DNA of 64,000 nucleotides from the NCBI GenBank assembly GCA_000827205.1, contig KN832555.1, forward strand, positions 1,042,893 through 1,106,892. The letters run 5' to 3'. Source of the DNA: Plicaturopsis crispa FD-325 SS-3. Its lineage: Eukaryota > Basidiomycota > Agaricomycetes > Amylocorticiales > Amylocorticiaceae. A program made the position numbers and the translations under genes. Position 1 is the first letter of the stretch; each line of letters begins with the position of its first letter. Below are positions 37,554 to 44,575 of this stretch, piece after piece. A model generated the notes under the pieces. It was not told where the DNA came from. It made no database searches and saw only the letters and a program-made list of their open reading frames with translations.

Positions 37554-38224
37554 TTTGACGAATGTTTTGAACGATACTTCTTGGTTATCTCTCGGGGGGT
37601 CTTATAGGTTCACGCTCTGCGCGCGCGTCCTGATATGTACGTCGGATTGACGTATACGTCAGCGCCTGCCCTCCGACAAGTACGAGTCCTGAGACGGACA
37701 TACCGCCTACATGAGGCGGCACCGAAACGAGGTGCGCGGGTCTTGAGGTAATACGCAAAGTCTGGGCCCTTTGGTGTAGCGTTCAAGCGGGCCTGTATGG
37801 TACGTCTATCTTGAAATGTTCCCGACTTAGTCTCGCGTCTTCCAACACATGCCTGATGCTCCTCGACCGTTCGAGGGTCACCTGGGACTGCGAGCCATAC
37901 ACTTTCCTGCAAGTGATGATACGGTGGATCGGTGGCGTAGCGTCGGGGAGCAGATGGTCAAGACCATGATAGCTAGTATAGCAGCGAGTAGGGAGTACAT
38001 TATGTCTTTACATACAAGTACATGTGCAGTTGAATACAAGTCGTGGCTTCATCTTACGGCCAAATTTTAGTCCGTGAATCATGTTATGGTAGACACTCCA
38101 TTGTAATGCTTATCTCACGGCAGCCCGTGTCGCGCTGCCCTCTTCCAGAACCCCCATGAACGGAGGTACACGGGAAGATGGCAGTTTCCCGAGTGCGTGC
38201 GCAGGCCGGCCATTGTAACGTACT
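37554..38224. other. Unassigned stretch between two unrecognised minus-strand genes
   Basis: A minus-strand frame of about 100 codons at 37610-37912 may belong to the gene at 36934-37553. Nothing else stands out. Confidence 0.3.
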
Positions 38225-38879
38225 TCAACTCGATGCTGGTTCTTCCTCCGGAAGAGCGTAAGTCTCCAGCTGTGGTGCCATGGTCAGCTGGATATAACCG
38301 AGAGGACACTCGATCACTACGAACCTTTCCAGCACTAAAACGTTGTACCCCTTCTTTTCGATTTCGTGCATCAGCTGCTGTCGCGCGAAGAGCAGCGCGT
38401 TGCTGAACTCGTTGCCCCGCGGCAGGGACTTGAGGTCGAAAACATACGTCCCGCACGTGTCGGTGTCGCAGACGCGGACGATGTCCAATTCTAGAAACGC
38501 AAACTCTCGGATTAGGCACAAGTTTGGTGGTGGTGGGTCTCCGCGAGAAGGACGCACCCTCTTCGTCATTCTCGTTGTAGTACACCGGGACTGGCTCCAC
38601 CGACTTGCTTTCCACGACCTCCCAGGGTGTCTCTCCTCTGCGCCGAAAGAAGCGGGGCACACGCATTGCGATGTTCGGGGCGAAAGTCGCGATGTCTCGC
38701 GATGGGTAGGCAGCTGGGCTTAACGGGAATCCGTGGCGATGAAAATTGTGGCGGAGGGGGGCGTTAGGGTTGAGATTAAAGGGCTCATTGTCGGTTTCCG
38801 CAGGGTTAATAAACACAGAGCGCTTCCGGAACACCTCGCGGCACCGCCACGCAAGCTGTTGAACGGGCTGCAATACCGC
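38225..38879 (-). CDS. Unrecognised protein with a conserved-looking C-terminal domain
   Basis: Two exons are clear: 38879-38558 and 38505-38225, joined in phase 1. At least one 5' exon should exist, because 38879 follows an acceptor and no fitting ATG begins this frame before an internal methionine. The product has a Phe/Arg/Pro-rich first half (NAPLRHNFHRHGFPLSP, VPRFFRRRGETPWEVVE). The second half is compact and alternates strand and helix: FAFLELDIVRVCDTDTCGTY, VFDLKSLPRGNEFSNALLFA, EIEKKGYNVLVLERFVVIEC, then a short acidic tail. It looks like a folded alpha/beta domain, but I know no family with these words. No signal peptide is visible in the readable part. Confidence 0.5.
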
Positions 38880-39745
38880 CTGCGGTCAAAAAACCGGATA
38901 TTAATATCTCGAGTCATCACGATCTCTGGGACTTAGTAGTAGCATCTGAGTAGCATACAACATGATCTTGGTAGACTCACGATGAAGATAAGATAGGTAC
39001 CGGATGAATCCATCCATCCATCCATCCACGGAGGAAAGAGGCCAACGGCAAGTACTCCGTCGGATCCACTGAGAGTTCCGGAATTGCACAGCACAGCTGC
39101 GCACATAGCTCTACAGGGATAAGATTCAGCGCCTCTGGCAGTAAATTTCTGGTTCAGAGACAAGTATGGAACGGGCTTACAGTCCTTGCCAGGTGTCGTC
39201 GCAATTCCTGACTACAAGAGTATGACACGACCGCACGGACTTACCGCAAAGGCCGGCGGTCCACGTCTCTCTTTCCGTAGCATTCCGTTGGGGCGAAATG
39301 ATTGGCTATGTTTGCATCCAATCGTGCAGCAGTGCTGTACACCGTTTGTGTTCATCCAGAGATGAGATCCGTCATTTTAGATGCAAAACTTGGTTTGACC
39401 GTTTGAGATGAGTTTACGGTTTCGCCACAGTGTCATCGTGGCAGTAGCGATGTCGAGGAACCGCTTCGTCGGTTCCGGCCGAGGGAGTTTTAAAGGCGTG
39501 CCATTATTGGATTGCCACTCTCTAAGTACCTCCATTATCATGGAACAAGCTCCTATAAAGTTCTTGGTACTACGGTTGAACGTTGAACGTTCAATGGTGA
39601 ATTGGGTGCACAAAACCCTCCTAGTCGCCCAGTTGCACCGTTTGTGTAGGATTTGTGAACAGCGCCCGTGACAATATATTTCATCAGATACATTCACATC
39701 CTTTAACCCCATAAAATGACACCGGTCACACTCGATGCTAGGACC
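38880..39745. other. Spacer with a CCAT microsatellite
   Basis: Probably holds the missing 5' exon or promoter of the gene at 38225-38879 and the 3' end of the BIM1-like gene. Apart from the repeat at 39008-39029 I see nothing definite. Confidence 0.35.
39008..39029. repeat. (CCAT)n microsatellite
   Basis: About five tandem CCAT units followed by CACGG. Simple repeat. Confidence 0.8.
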
Positions 39746-40553
39746 CTATAGAGCCATCGCGAAACCCATGACACCAAGAATGCCTGCAACAATGCCGGAG
39801 GAAGTGCTCGCACCTCCAAGAGCGCCGCTTGTCGAAGTCGACGACGACGAGGAAGACGATGATGTCGAAGTCGCATTAGAGCACGACACACCCGATTCGC
39901 TTGCATTGCTCGACAGCGTCAGGTCAGCGCACTGTTACCGGATATCCGTCAGCATGTGTCTCCAATCGAATCTCCGCAGGAGAGCGCGTACCTGGTAGAG
40001 CGCGCCGTCTCCGCCATCAAACACGAATTCCAATGTTACGTTCTGGCCATCCTTCAGACCGCCGGTTGCGTTTGCAGAGAGGAGGTCGACGGGTAGGCAG
40101 AACGCGCCCTCGCCGCTGAACGACGCAAATGGTGCCAGGAACTGGTTCTTTCCGCCAGAGGTGAAGTTGTCGAACGAGGTGGGGTTCTGCACGGTGGAAA
40201 CGAGGATTCCGACTGTATTAAAATGATTGGATAGAATTAGTTAGCTGATACCGTGTAGTACGGTTAAGATGGAGCACTAACGCGTCCACGAAGGGTGTTC
40301 ACTGGTCAAAGTGATGAAACCGCCCGAGAGGGGGAAGGAAGTGCGGTTCGACACAGCGTTGTTGTAACCATCTGCAAATAGTCCTCCATTAGTCCTTGCG
40401 CATAAGTGTCAACCGTGAATACAGAAACTAACCGCAGAACGTAGGCTCATCATCCTCCACAAAGTTCCCTCGCGGTGCGGGGTACTGGAGGTGGAAATGC
40501 GCGTTGGCGACAGCAGCGAGCCCGGCGAAAATCGTGAACGACGTGAAGCGCAT
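39746..40553 (-). CDS. BIM1-like (X325) copper-binding, GPI-anchored secreted protein
   Basis: 205 residues in four exons: 40553-40433, 40371-40282, 40212-39992, 39931-39746. The signal peptide ([18 protein letters not shown]) would be cut just before a histidine, giving the mature start [11 protein letters not shown]. This N-terminal His with the (Y/F)PxPRG sequence is the mark of LPMO-like BIM1/X325 proteins, which bind copper through that histidine. Cysteines fall at [13 protein letters not shown] and YQCADLTL. N-glycosylation sites and a Ser/Thr-rich stalk precede a hydrophobic C terminus ([16 protein letters not shown]), as for a GPI anchor. The related Cryptococcus Bim1 aids copper import with Ctr1. 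The next gene upstream here is a CTR copper transporter on the same strand. Confidence 0.9.
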
Positions 40554-41104
40554 TGTGGTTTTGGATGGTCGTAAGGAAGGAAGGATATGGGGATGGTACT
40601 GTATCCTTTCTTGCTGGAACCGACGAGCGTTACCGGGAGGGCTTTATAGTCCTGTCGAGTTCAGTGATGAGATGCGCTTGTCCCTCCAGCCACCGGGAAC
40701 CTTTCGGGCAGGCTGCCCGTGCGAAAATATGGCAAGCGAAAAAAAACTTTTTCACCTCGTTCCCACGTGCGCCAACGCCCCTGTCGCCCTCTGAGCGTGA
40801 AAGCGCTTGAGCCCGTCGACAAGTGTCTGCGTCGATGGCAACGGGGAATATTCTTCTTGCCGTCGTTGCACGGTCGATATACGAAGGTGCTTTTGGGGCA
40901 GGTCGCCGTGTCCCAGGGGCCGCTTGCAGGAGCGTCGGTGGCATCGACGGAGATAATGGTGGGGCTCGCAAACAGAGATGGCTCATCATTTCGTCGAAGT
41001 CAAAGGGGATGGCTTTCCAACGTTAGACAAGGGCGGACAACAGTAAAAGATACAGGATGAATCGACATCCGTAACAGCTTGACAAGCAAATGAACGGGAA
41101 AGTC
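40554..41104. other. Spacer between CTR and BIM1-like genes
   Basis: Holds the BIM1-like promoter with its TATA box (40642-40648) and the CTR 3' region. The open frames here on both strands lack recognisable content. Confidence 0.45.
40642..40648 (-). promoter_or_regulatory. TATA box of the BIM1-like gene
   Basis: TATAAAG on the minus strand, about 90 bases upstream of the ATG at 40553. Confidence 0.6.
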
Positions 41105-41756
41105 TCAATGAACATGACCATGCGCGCCGCCGAACCGACCAAACACAACCTCTCCAATGCCCAACCCGAGTATGATTGTGATGATATACGCAGCATTGAA
41201 CGTCCTGCATATCTCAATCAAAACACGAAGGGACTGCGGACGCGGCGCACTCACATCACGGCCAACATGAGAACATAGGCCAGGAGCATTTGGATGACAT
41301 ACGCAATTCCGCGGGGAACATCGTTCGCAGCGATGAACGGTGCGAACACACGAGTGCTTTTCACTGAGCTCGCAGCCGACGTAGCGCCCTTGTCCTCGTC
41401 GCTGGACTGTGTCGATGCTCGCGCATCGCCTTTCTGTTTGCCAGATACGACAGCCAAAGCGCTTTGGATAGCCATTAGCACGGCCCATGCACCAGCGGCG
41501 AGAATCGTGGGACGCACTTGCTCTTCCACCGCGCTTCCAGCACGCCTCGGAAAGCAGCGAGCCCGCGCTCGATGAGGGTGAGCACGAACAGCCCGATACA
41601 GGCGCCCGCGATCGCCCCGCTAGAGGACGGCATCCACGAAGCGAAAAACAGATTGTCACCGCCAGTAAAGTGAAAGTAAGGCGTCATCATCATCATCATG
41701 GTCGAGTCGCTGCTGGCCGTAGCTGTGGCTGACGCTGTAGCCGTAGACATGTCCAT
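41105..41756 (-). CDS. CTR-family high-affinity copper transporter
   Basis: 181 residues in three exons: 41756-41518, 41461-41255, 41204-41105. Forms a trimeric copper(I) channel in the plasma or vacuolar membrane. The N terminus is short and Met-rich (MDMSTATAS, then five Met in a row before TPYFHFTGGDNLFFASW). TM1 is SSSGAIAGACIGLFVLTLIE. A charged cytoplasmic loop follows. TM2 is VIQMLLAYVLMLAVM and carries the MxxxM selectivity motif. TM3 is AAYIITIILGLGIGEVVFG with the GxxxG packing motif. The tail ends in HGHVH, a histidine-rich metal site. An in-frame ATG four codons upstream (41768) is possible. A telobox lies 81-94 bases upstream of the ATG. Confidence 0.93.
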
Positions 41757-42988
41757 GGTAGAGGTCATGGCAGATGATAGGAATGTGCGACGTGATGATG
41801 GTTCTGACCGCCGGAATAAGAATGGAAGGGGAAATAAACCCTAACCCTAATTCTGGTGACGAAAAACAAGAAATGGACGAACGTACGTACGTACGTACTT
41901 CGCAGCTGCAGCGGGGCACGCGACGCGATTGTCACGATAGGAACATAGGAACGACTCACAAAGAACGCAGGAACCAGAACTTGTGAAGATGGCCAAAAGA
42001 TACGGAGGAGACGGTACTTTTGCTGCAGCAGCCGATCGGGTACTTCGGATAGAGTAGCGGGGCGAGCGCAGGTGAACGTCCGCAAGCTCACCAGGGACCA
42101 TGACGCGTTCGAAGCAATGCGACCCGGATCGGTTCATCGCAAAACATTGAGAGCGAGCCGGACGGGCATATTGAGCGAGGGCACGACAACCGGGCTCTTC
42201 ATCCAAAGCCGACGGACGATAACGAGAGGGGCGGCGGCGGCGGGAAGCACGAGTGATTGAGAAACATCAAGCGGGATATCGATTTTCGGCAGCACAGGCA
42301 GAGACGACATGGACGAAGGAGAGCAGAGATAGGCAATCGCAGGGAAATCGTGCTTGACGTCTGAGAGGACAAGTCGGAGAAAATCGAGTGCCCAATGGGC
42401 AGGGTCAGATTCGGAGAACTACGCTCGCACTTTCCCTGCCCATGCAAATTATTCGACAGGTGTTCGATAATCGTGCTTGAATATGGGTCCGCTTCCGGGG
42501 GGGGGGGGTGACGAGATCCTGAGCTCACTAATTCGAGCGTCGCAGACGGACAAACGCGAAAAATTAAGGACCAAACGACTGTGGAGAGTCCTCGTAGAAA
42601 GCAGTTGATCTCGATATGACCTGTACAGCTGGGGTGGACGTCGAGCCAGTGCTGAGTGGGGCAGCTCTATGATGTTCTGGTTAACGAGTAGCACAGGAGG
42701 AAGTACGAAAGCTAGCGAAAAGCGAAAAGAAACAAGCAAGTACCAACTGACGAGCGAGTGCACTGCGGGCGTACGTGGACGTTGGGAGAGAGACGGGCAG
42801 GCGAGGGCGAGGCATTTGTGCGAGGTCTGGCCAATGGCGTTATTCTCTCACGCTTTGGGCTGAGATCCTGTCTTTATAGCGCAACAGTTTCCCACGGGTT
42901 TCACAATGAATCTCAACGCGCACCCTCCGAACGTCCGACGACGCTCTCACTCGACACCTGCACCTTTCCGTTACACCGCCAAAGCAAC
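41757..42988. other. Divergent promoter region between CTR and rhodanese genes
   Basis: 1.2 kb without a supported gene. Contains a telobox at 41837-41850, an (ACGT)n tract at about 41880-41898 and a run of about a dozen G at 42497-42508. Open frames here look like chance. Confidence 0.5.
41837..41850. promoter_or_regulatory. Telobox-like motif AACCCTAACCCTAA
   Basis: Two tandem CCCTAA units, 81-94 bases upstream of the CTR start codon. Telobox-like motifs in fungal promoters bind Tbf1/Rap1/Myb-type factors; here the role is inferred from position. Confidence 0.5.
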
Positions 42989-43640
42989 ATGCTGCGTACG
43001 ATTTCCAGACCCGCATCGCGGACGGTCTTTTCCGCTACCCGTGTCGCGCGCACACCGCGCGTTCTCCTGCCGGCATTCCAGCAGTCCCTGCGGCATGAGT
43101 CCGGGCTGCCGCCATTCGACAAGGAGAAGCGCAGGCAGGTGCTCGAGGCGCGCGACGACCAACAGCGGGACTGGGACGCAAAAGTCGTCACATACGCCGA
43201 TATCAAACCGAAGACCCTGAGCCCAAGTCCTGTACGCCCTCTCACGCGCATTAATGGATGCAGTTAATTAACTGCGAGCAGGACGCGTACCTCATTGACG
43301 TGCGAGAGCCGGACGAGGTCATACAGGGCTCTATCCCTTCCGCAGTCAACCTCCCTCTGTCCGTGCTCGCCAACTCTCTGCACCTCGACCCTGCCAAATT
43401 CAAACAGACACACGGGTTTGAGAAACCAAAGAAGGACCAGGAAGTGACGTTCTACTGCCGTAGCGGTGTGCGCAGTTCGACAGCCAGCGACGTTGCGAAA
43501 CGGAATGGCTACACAAAGTGTGTCCCTGCTGTACTCTGTGTCCGCTCAATAGCTGTTACTGACCTTTATTCCTGATTAGCATCCAGAATTACAAAGGATC
43601 CTGGTTGGACTGGCTGGAGCAAGACAAGAGCTCTTCATGA
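42989..43640 (+). CDS. Mitochondrial single-domain rhodanese
   Basis: 185 residues in three exons: 42989-43231, 43264-43517, 43580-43640. The N terminus (MLRTISRPASRTVFSATRVA) is a typical mitochondrial presequence with Arg/Ser and no acids. The rhodanese domain has LIDVREPDEVIQGSIPSAVN, then FYCRSGVRSSTASDVAKRNG with the active cysteine at about 146, and ends NYKGSWLDW. It resembles yeast Rdl1/Rdl2, which turn over thiosulfate. The first intron is only 32 bases (43232-43263), short for this window but with clear GTACGC and CAG borders. It lies 218 bases upstream of frataxin on the same strand. Confidence 0.9.
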
Positions 43641-43794: not shown

Positions 43795-43808
43795 AACCCT
43801 AACCCTAA
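43795..43808. promoter_or_regulatory. Telobox-like motif AACCCTAACCCTAA
   Basis: The same 14-mer as at 41837-41850, here 51-64 bases upstream of the frataxin ATG. Confidence 0.5.
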
Positions 43809-43858: not shown

Positions 43859-44575
43859 ATGTTGTCAAGAAACCTCGCACGTCTCATTGTCCAGCGCTCC
43901 ATCTGCCACGGGCAACGCGTTTGCCTTAGGCAAATATCACGCCAGTATGCCTCGCCGTCCTCAGTTATCGCTGCCCAGCGACACCGGCGGCATATGAGCA
44001 CCCCACCACCGCAGCTTAATGTTAGGTACGCACCGTTCTCCCCTCAGTTCGGGCGCACCGAGTTGATTACGTTGGTGCTAGTGAACTCTCCATGGAGAGG
44101 TACCACGAACTATCCGACGCAACCATGGACACGCTCCTCGAATCGCTCGAGGATTTACTGGACGGGCTCGCGAATCCCGCGTACGAGGTCGAATACAGCG
44201 TATGTGCAGCAGCTTCCCGAGCGGTAGTCGACGATCTAACGCTGCTTCGTCCTGCTAGAGCGGGGTGCTCACCCTCATACTCGGGGACAAGGGCACATAC
44301 GTGATCAACAAGCAGCCCCCGAACAAGCAGATATGGCTGTCCTCTCCCTTCAGGTGCGTAGCATTCTCCCCATCAACTTCCTCTCAGTGACTTATTATAC
44401 CTGCAATGCTAGCGGTCCTAAACGCTACGACTATTCGGCGCCGAGGGATACATGGCTGTACTCCCGCGACGACCGACCACTGGGAGACCTATTAGACCAG
44501 GAGCTGAGTGATGCATTAGGGTTCGAAGTGAAGCTCGGCGTGGACGTGGTGTCGCAAAAGGTGGAATCAAGTTAG
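43859..44575 (+). CDS. YFH1: Frataxin (iron-sulfur cluster assembly)
   Basis: 180 residues in four exons: 43859-44025, 44082-44199, 44259-44353, 44413-44575. Mitochondrial matrix protein that speeds iron-sulfur cluster assembly. The N terminus [20 protein letters not shown] is a presequence. The fold is seen as [20 protein letters not shown] (helix with acidic ridge), [40 protein letters not shown] and [20 protein letters not shown]. The [21 protein letters not shown] core is the family's best conserved stretch. All splice phases agree. Confidence 0.97.

What the first reader, a model, noticed from the sequence alone, without database searches (positions are those of the whole stretch)
39746..41756. 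Copper-uptake mini-cluster: BIM1-like protein next to a CTR transporter
A GPI-anchored BIM1/X325 protein with the mature N-terminal histidine and a CTR copper channel (MxxxM, GxxxG, Met-rich N terminus, HGHVH tail) are neighbours on the same strand. In Cryptococcus the related Bim1 and Ctr1 work together in copper import. Physical linkage suggests shared regulation and a two-part copper capture and import module.
Basis: partly seen in the sequence, partly recalled or inferred. Interest (0 to 1): 0.75.

Follow-up and report, generated by a model that had tools for sequence, protein, structure and literature searches.

The report
BIM1-CTR copper-uptake gene pair
In this fungus a gene for a copper-catching surface protein sits directly beside a gene for a copper channel, a real and sensible pairing that resembles a neighbour set already reported in the mould Aspergillus fumigatus, although nothing in the DNA shows that the two genes are switched on together.

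Summary
Two intact intron-containing genes lie in tandem on the minus strand, 551 bases apart: a BIM1-like/X325 protein (205 aa; PF20238, E 2.4e-29; 40% identical to LaX325; mature His1, His48 and the GGDG Asp kept; GPI-type tail) and a CTR channel (185 aa; PF04145, E 5.9e-36; MxxxM-x12-GxxxG). Searches of the genome found no second BIM1 and one other CTR, but they could miss divergent copies. Adjacency by chance is roughly 4 in 10,000 if those counts are right, reckoned after the fact. In Aspergillus fumigatus a GPI-anchored protein, the copper transporter CtrA2 and a metalloreductase are adjacent and were co-induced; a table in another paper points to that GPI protein as the BIM1 homologue (my inference). 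Linkage is not universal: tags put CTR and BIM1 apart in Cryptococcus and Pseudogymnoascus. The predicted shared copper-response motif was not found; the only Cryptococcus-type match is far from CTR and near a divergent rhodanese gene. Relatives of this fungus could not be searched. Verdict: a genuine copper capture-and-import pair, a new member of a known kind; co-regulation unproven.

The parts
39746..40553 (-). BIM1-like / X325 gene, 4 exons (40553-40433, 40371-40282, 40212-39992, 39931-39746 with stop), 205 aa, signal-peptide-like start, mature His1, Ser-rich stretch and GPI-type hydrophobic tail
41105..41768 (-). CTR copper transporter gene, 3 exons (41768-41518, 41461-41255, 41204-41105 with stop), 185 aa, MxxxM-x12-GxxxG, run of five Met in the N-terminus, HGHVH tail
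40554..41104 (.). 551-base gap between the CTR stop and the BIM1 start, holding the BIM1 promoter; no strict fungal copper-response consensus found; no Pfam match in three long frames
41769..42988 (.). Upstream stretch of CTR, shared head to head with a rhodanese-domain gene starting at 42989; holds a double telomere-type repeat (41837-41850) and an (ACGT)4 run (41881-41896)
42989..43640 (+). Neighbour: rhodanese-domain gene, divergent from CTR (not a copper-uptake gene; end approximate)
43859..44575 (+). Neighbour: frataxin gene (end approximate)

Best explanation
The pair encodes two successive steps of high-affinity copper uptake. The BIM1-like protein is secreted, has its signal peptide cut before His19, and is tethered by a GPI anchor at the cell surface; it binds Cu(II) through a histidine brace (mature His1 and His48) plus the Asp of the GGDG loop (mature Asp121). 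Copper is released, reduced by a metalloreductase encoded elsewhere, and passed as Cu(I) through the trimeric CTR channel; its Met run, MxxxM and HGHVH tail would bind and hand on the metal. Shown here: sequences, exon structure, ligand conservation, adjacency, and copy number at the sensitivity reached. Taken from papers on relatives: cooperation of Cbi1/Bim1 with Ctr1 and induction in copper starvation. Inferred: surface localisation, that this CTR rather than the other one is the partner, the reduction step, and that adjacency was kept by selection.
For: Pfam matches; 40% identity to LaX325 with H1, H48, D121 and the four mature cysteines C22, C91, C127, C143 invariant; His brace plus an Asp on a Gly-rich loop as copper site of LaX325 and modelled Bim1, with mutagenesis support (passages of PMC7529816); CTR signature MetXXXMet-X12-GlyXXXGly (passages of PMC6531763; seen); match to the CTR1 structure 6m97 (E 7.2e-9). 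No second BIM1 gene found; two CTR genes by family search, giving chance adjacency of 3.3e-4 to 4.0e-4 for 10,000-12,000 genes, a gene number that I assumed. Precedent: A. fumigatus Afu6g02800 (putative GPI-anchored), Afu6g02810 (copper transporter) and Afu6g02820 (metalloreductase) adjacent and higher together in hyphae exposed to normal than to CGD neutrophils, log2 11, 8, 3 (passages of PMC2481287); a table in PMC13208438 lists XP_747797, XP_747796 and XP_747795 beside P. destructans BLP2, CTR1a and FRE7. Cbi1 and Ctr1 interact physically and genetically in C. neoformans (passages of PMC9258870).
Against: No strict shared copper-response motif. Tandem, not divergent, and the CTR promoter faces a rhodanese gene. 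No metalloreductase at the locus: of 8 PF08030 matches none lies within 1 Mb. Unlinked in P. destructans (CTR VC83_00191, 04814; BLPs VC83_02818, 03095, 07867) and C. neoformans (CBI1 CNAG_02775; CTR homologues CNAG_00979, 01872, 07701). In A. fumigatus under copper excess ctrA2 fell 4.85-fold while Afu6g02820 was among the metalloreductases more strongly upregulated in wild type than in the aceA mutant, so that set does not respond as one unit to copper (passages of PMC8425704). X325 proteins also have reported roles in wall remodelling and development (passages of PMC9695133). That Afu6g02800 is the BIM1 homologue is inferred from the matching order of tags and accessions; the column of XP_747796 was blank-padded in the text and I read it as A. 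fumigatus from its number.
Confidence: 0.72

Rival explanations
1. Both genes work in copper biology but their adjacency is a coincidence of gene order with no shared regulation or selection.
For: No strict shared copper-response consensus; tandem layout; the neighbours that could be named (rhodanese, frataxin, WD40, BET bromodomain, KH) are not copper-uptake genes; unlinked in C. neoformans and P. destructans; the pair was picked out after reading and copy numbers are lower bounds, so the 4-in-10,000 figure overstates surprise.
Against: A similar neighbour set in A. fumigatus with co-induction, consecutive tags of BLP2 and a metalloreductase in P. destructans (VC83_03095/03096) and ctr-fre pairs in F. 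oxysporum show that such genes do cluster in fungi.
Confidence: 0.35
2. The BIM1-like protein acts mainly in cell-wall remodelling or development, as reported for other X325 proteins, and the CTR serves copper needs independently.
For: X325 proteins are reported in Laccaria-Populus symbiosis, Podospora growth, Epichloe symbiosis and synnema formation (passages of PMC9695133); Cbi1 loss alters the Cryptococcus wall and the cbi1 mutant has phenotypes that the ctr1 mutant lacks.
Against: In C. neoformans overexpressed CBI1 does not restore wall integrity without CTR1; two of three P. destructans BLPs are induced by copper withholding; loss of the X325 gene IcFBR1 lowers a CTR3 transcript (log2 -1.17); the copper ligands are kept here.
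Confidence: 0.15
3. The CTR of the pair is a vacuolar, CTR2-type exporter of stored copper, so the two proteins never meet.
For: Its N-terminus has one Met run and lacks the repeated His/Met motifs of the other CTR on contig C3; the two are 28% identical over 111 residues. Fungal CTR families include vacuolar members.
Against: A Met run stands about 20 residues before the first membrane segment and the full channel signature is present. These features do not separate the types firmly, and no fungal reference sequences were at hand for a tree.
Confidence: 0.2

Closest known systems
Aspergillus fumigatus Afu6g02800 - Afu6g02810 (CtrA2) - Afu6g02820 neighbour set
   Same: GPI-anchored protein (by inference the BIM1 homologue) beside a CTR copper transporter; co-induced in one experiment
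   Different: Has a third gene, a metalloreductase, not found near the pair here; an ascomycete; nothing about expression is known here
Cryptococcus neoformans Cbi1/Bim1 with Ctr1
   Same: Same two families, shown to interact and to be Cuf1-dependent in copper starvation (passages)
   Different: Genes not adjacent by locus tags; no expression or interaction data for the pair here
LaX325 of Laetisaria arvalis (6ibh, 6ibi, 6ibj)
   Same: 40% identity, same mature N-terminal His, internal His, GGDG Asp and four cysteines
   Different: A single solved protein; its genomic neighbours were not looked up
Fusarium oxysporum ctr3-fre9 and ctr1b-fre12 pairs
   Same: CTR gene clustered with another copper-uptake gene (passages)
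   Different: Partner is a metalloreductase, divergently transcribed, with Mac1 sites reported; here the partner is BIM1-like, in tandem, and no such sites were found

Membership tests
BIM1-like / X325 (PF20238) | Match to the family model above its cut-off | tested here: met
   103 bits against 27, positions 1-139 of 140
BIM1-like / X325 (PF20238) | Mature N-terminal His, second His and Gly-loop Asp as copper ligands | tested here: met
   H1, H48, D121 invariant with LaX325 in a two-sequence alignment; ligand types from passages of PMC7529816; that D121 is the ligand is my reading of 'Gly-rich loop'
BIM1-like / X325 (PF20238) | Secretion signal and GPI anchor | tested here: inconclusive
   Hydrophobic C-terminal tail after a Ser-rich stretch; no N-terminal window above threshold; no dedicated predictor
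BIM1-like / X325 (PF20238) | Copper binding and role in uptake | not testable with these tools
   needs protein or mutants
CTR copper transporter (PF04145) | Match to the family model above its cut-off | tested here: met
   124.7 bits against 25.3, positions 2-151 of 151
CTR copper transporter (PF04145) | MxxxM-x12-GxxxG signature | tested here: met
   M149-M153, 12 residues, G166-G170
CTR copper transporter (PF04145) | Three transmembrane segments | tested here: inconclusive
   Hydropathy over threshold at 48-73 and as one long stretch 132-178, long enough for two segments but not resolved by the scan; the matched parts of 6m97 agree
CTR copper transporter (PF04145) | Plasma-membrane rather than vacuolar type | not testable with these tools
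   no fungal reference sequences at hand for a tree
Copper-uptake gene cluster (CTR with BIM1 and/or metalloreductase) | Genes adjacent | tested here: met
   551 bases apart; three long frames between them without Pfam match
Copper-uptake gene cluster (CTR with BIM1 and/or metalloreductase) | Shared copper-response sites | tested here: not met
   0 strict matches upstream of BIM1; 1 upstream of CTR, distant; the consensus of this fungus's regulators is unknown, so the negative is weak
Copper-uptake gene cluster (CTR with BIM1 and/or metalloreductase) | Metalloreductase in the cluster (seen in some sets, not in all) | tested here: not met
   8 PF08030 matches at E up to 0.01, nearest about 1.07 Mb away on the same contig
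Copper-uptake gene cluster (CTR with BIM1 and/or metalloreductase) | Linkage conserved in relatives | not testable with these tools
   no fungal relatives held; searches found none in non-fungal collections

The most novel reading that the evidence does not exclude
Probability: 0.3. Interest if true: 0.55.

Novelty: new member of a known kind. Interest (0 to 1): 0.38.

Why it matters
How BIM1 hands copper to CTR, and to which CTR when a genome has several, is open. A genome in which the only BIM1 gene found stands beside one of the two CTR genes found offers a simple test case, and comparison with the A. fumigatus neighbour set would show whether gene order marks the functional partner. If the linkage is coincidental, the finding is ordinary.

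Tried and rejected
A frameshift in the CTR gene: suggested by the change of frame near 41,500 and by my first splice; rejected when a 56-base GT-AG intron (41517-41462) restored the frame.

Other BIM1 copies: the PF20238 family search found nothing, not even the window's gene, so it was not used as evidence. The window protein, LaX325 and an N-terminal DNA pattern (8 matches, against 14 for the reversed control; only the window gene reads as X325) found no second copy. Limits: protein searches of this kind did not see distant paralogues, since the window CTR did not find the C3 CTR nor the reverse. Divergent BIM1 or CTR copies may therefore exist.

Shared promoter elements: consensus motifs (the Cryptococcus CuRE, TTTGCTCA and TGTGCTCA come from papers, the others are recalled) and shared 10-mers between upstream stretches of BIM1 (552 bases), CTR (700) and the C3 CTR (600): none for the pair, one between BIM1 and C3 CTR. 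GTAC, a copper core reported for another fungus's CTR promoters, occurs 10 times in 1192 bases upstream of CTR (about 4.7 expected from 253 in the window) and once upstream of BIM1 (about 2.2 expected); four of the ten are one (ACGT)4 run, so I did not count it.

Relatives: viral contigs with both proteins and genome contigs with the two-sequence alignment gave none. Structure prediction was not run, because a spliced protein is not a letter-for-letter reading of the window.

Papers: 10 searches; the last, for copper transporter, metalloreductase, GPI-anchored, adjacent, X325, LPMO (5 of 6), returned none. Searches listed mostly off-topic papers. Two papers that I recall as first describing Bim1 and X325 are not held (identifiers recalled). 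I saw passages of 15 papers and the whole text of none.

Full report
What is there. The window lies on contig C2 of a 33.2-Mb genome in 49 contigs. At 39746-40553 (minus, stop included) a four-exon gene encodes a 205-residue protein that matches PF20238, BIM1-like, at 103 bits. phmmer against solved structures gives one distinct sequence at E up to 0.001, LaX325 (6ibh), E 6.5e-32, aligned from query residue 19 to residue 1 of the chain. The two share 40% identity; His1, His48, Asp121 in GGDG and cysteines 22, 91, 127 and 143 (mature numbering) are invariant. A Ser/Thr-rich stretch leads to a hydrophobic tail (188-205), as in GPI-anchored proteins; six N-glycosylation sequons are present. No anchor or signal predictor was available, and the N-terminus did not pass the hydropathy threshold used.

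At 41105-41768 (minus, stop included) a three-exon gene encodes a 185-residue CTR protein, PF04145 at 124.7 bits, with M149xxxM153, twelve residues, G166xxxG170, a run of five Met (24-28) about 20 residues before the first membrane segment, and the tail HGHVH. It matches the CTR1 structure 6m97 at E 7.2e-9. The genes are 551 bases apart; three long stop-to-stop frames in the gap have no Pfam match. Divergent from CTR is a rhodanese-domain gene (start 42989), then frataxin (start 43859), a WD40 gene and frames with bromodomain and BET domains; a second rhodanese-domain gene lies near 35.3-36.6 kb and KH domains at 31.4-32.1 kb. None of these is a copper-uptake gene. Pfam was run on selected stretches only (10 frames each, of which 17 of 20 had no match; three joined models; four frames), so genes may have been overlooked.

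Copy number and chance. The PF04145 family search found two genes, this one and one on C3 (3 matches). The window CTR as query found only itself; the C3 CTR found only itself plus a 13.9-bit match on C14, E 0.6, which I disregarded. So protein queries here do not see paralogues as distant as 28% identity, and counts are lower bounds. For BIM1, two protein queries and an N-terminal pattern found only the window's gene, while the family search missed even that one. If a single BIM1 gene fell at random among 10,000-12,000 genes (my assumption), it would flank one of two CTR genes with probability 3.3e-4 to 4.0e-4; more copies would raise this in proportion. The pair was noticed after reading the sequence, so the figure is descriptive, not a test. 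The C3 CTR has a His/Met-repeat N-terminus, and no BIM1 match fell near it in the whole-genome searches.

Regulation. The genome has two copper-fist matches above cut-off among five listed, so a regulator of that class probably exists. The Cryptococcus CuRE consensus (passages of PMC7961099), TTTGCTC(A), TGTGCTCA and the S. pombe CuSE (recalled) have no match in 552 bases upstream of BIM1; in 1192 bases upstream of CTR there is one Cryptococcus-type match at 42817 (0.11 expected; the relaxed form, the same site, 0.43), 1049 bases from the CTR start. Looser cores show no clear excess: 3 and 1 upstream of BIM1 against 1.58 and 0.44 expected, 2 and 1 upstream of CTR against 3.41 and 0.95. In 1000 bases upstream of the C3 CTR five patterns gave no match, so the consensus of other fungi may not apply here and the negative result is weak. 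Tandem layout excludes a shared bidirectional promoter.

Precedent and counter-examples (passages only). In C. neoformans Cbi1/Bim1 and Ctr1 interact physically and genetically and are among the genes most induced through Cuf1 in copper starvation (PMC9258870). In A. fumigatus, Afu6g02800 (putative GPI-anchored protein), Afu6g02810 (there called a low-affinity copper transporter; [quoted passage not shown] a strain lacking all three grew normally on iron-limited media (PMC2481287). Under copper excess, however, ctrA2 fell while Afu6g02820 was among genes more strongly upregulated in wild type than in the aceA mutant (PMC8425704), so that set is not one copper-response unit. A table in PMC13208438 lists XP_747797, XP_747796 and XP_747795 beside P. 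destructans BLP2, CTR1a and FRE7. Matching the order of accessions to the order of tags makes Afu6g02800 the BIM1 homologue; this is inference. In P. destructans BLP2 (VC83_03095) and a metalloreductase (VC83_03096) have consecutive tags, with no CTR among the near tags. In F. oxysporum ctr3-fre9 and ctr1b-fre12 are neighbours (PMC11563359). In C. neoformans the tags of CBI1 and of three CTR homologues are far apart. None of 8 PF08030 matches lies near the window pair. So clustering of copper-uptake genes is a known kind; I did not find a BIM1-CTR pair in a basidiomycete described in ten searches of the held library, which lacks most subscription journals.

Mechanism. Best supported: surface capture of Cu(II) by the histidine-brace protein, release and reduction, and Cu(I) import by the CTR trimer. 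Sequence and ligands are shown; localisation, partner choice and co-regulation are inferred. Rivals are coincidental order, a mainly cell-wall role of the X325 protein, and a vacuolar CTR; none is excluded.

Verdict. Observation confirmed; interpretation partly supported; new member of a known kind. The literature link to A. fumigatus raises the finding above a single curious pair, and a gene-order survey of fungi would settle it.

Noticed in passing
window 41837-41850 and 43795-43808: Double telomere-type repeats (AACCCTAACCCTAA) lie 69-82 bases upstream of the CTR start and 51-64 bases upstream of the likely frataxin start. The genome has 49 matches in all, overlapping ones included and some near contig ends, against 0 for the reversed pattern; two within 2 kb is notable. 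Promoter elements or repair scars; not resolved.
   Followed up: partly
window 41881-41896: An (ACGT)4 run upstream of CTR, the only run of three or more such units in the window; it gives four GTAC cores.
   Followed up: no
window 35.3-36.6 kb and 42989-43640: Two rhodanese-domain genes lie on either side of the copper pair, the nearer one followed by frataxin.
   Followed up: no
L001 (G000:C3:1538137-1538949): The second CTR gene of this genome has a His/Met-repeat N-terminus very unlike the window's CTR; no BIM1 match fell near it in whole-genome searches.
   Followed up: partly
window 38118-38885 (minus): Long open frames beside the BIM1-like gene with no Pfam match; identity unknown.
   Followed up: no
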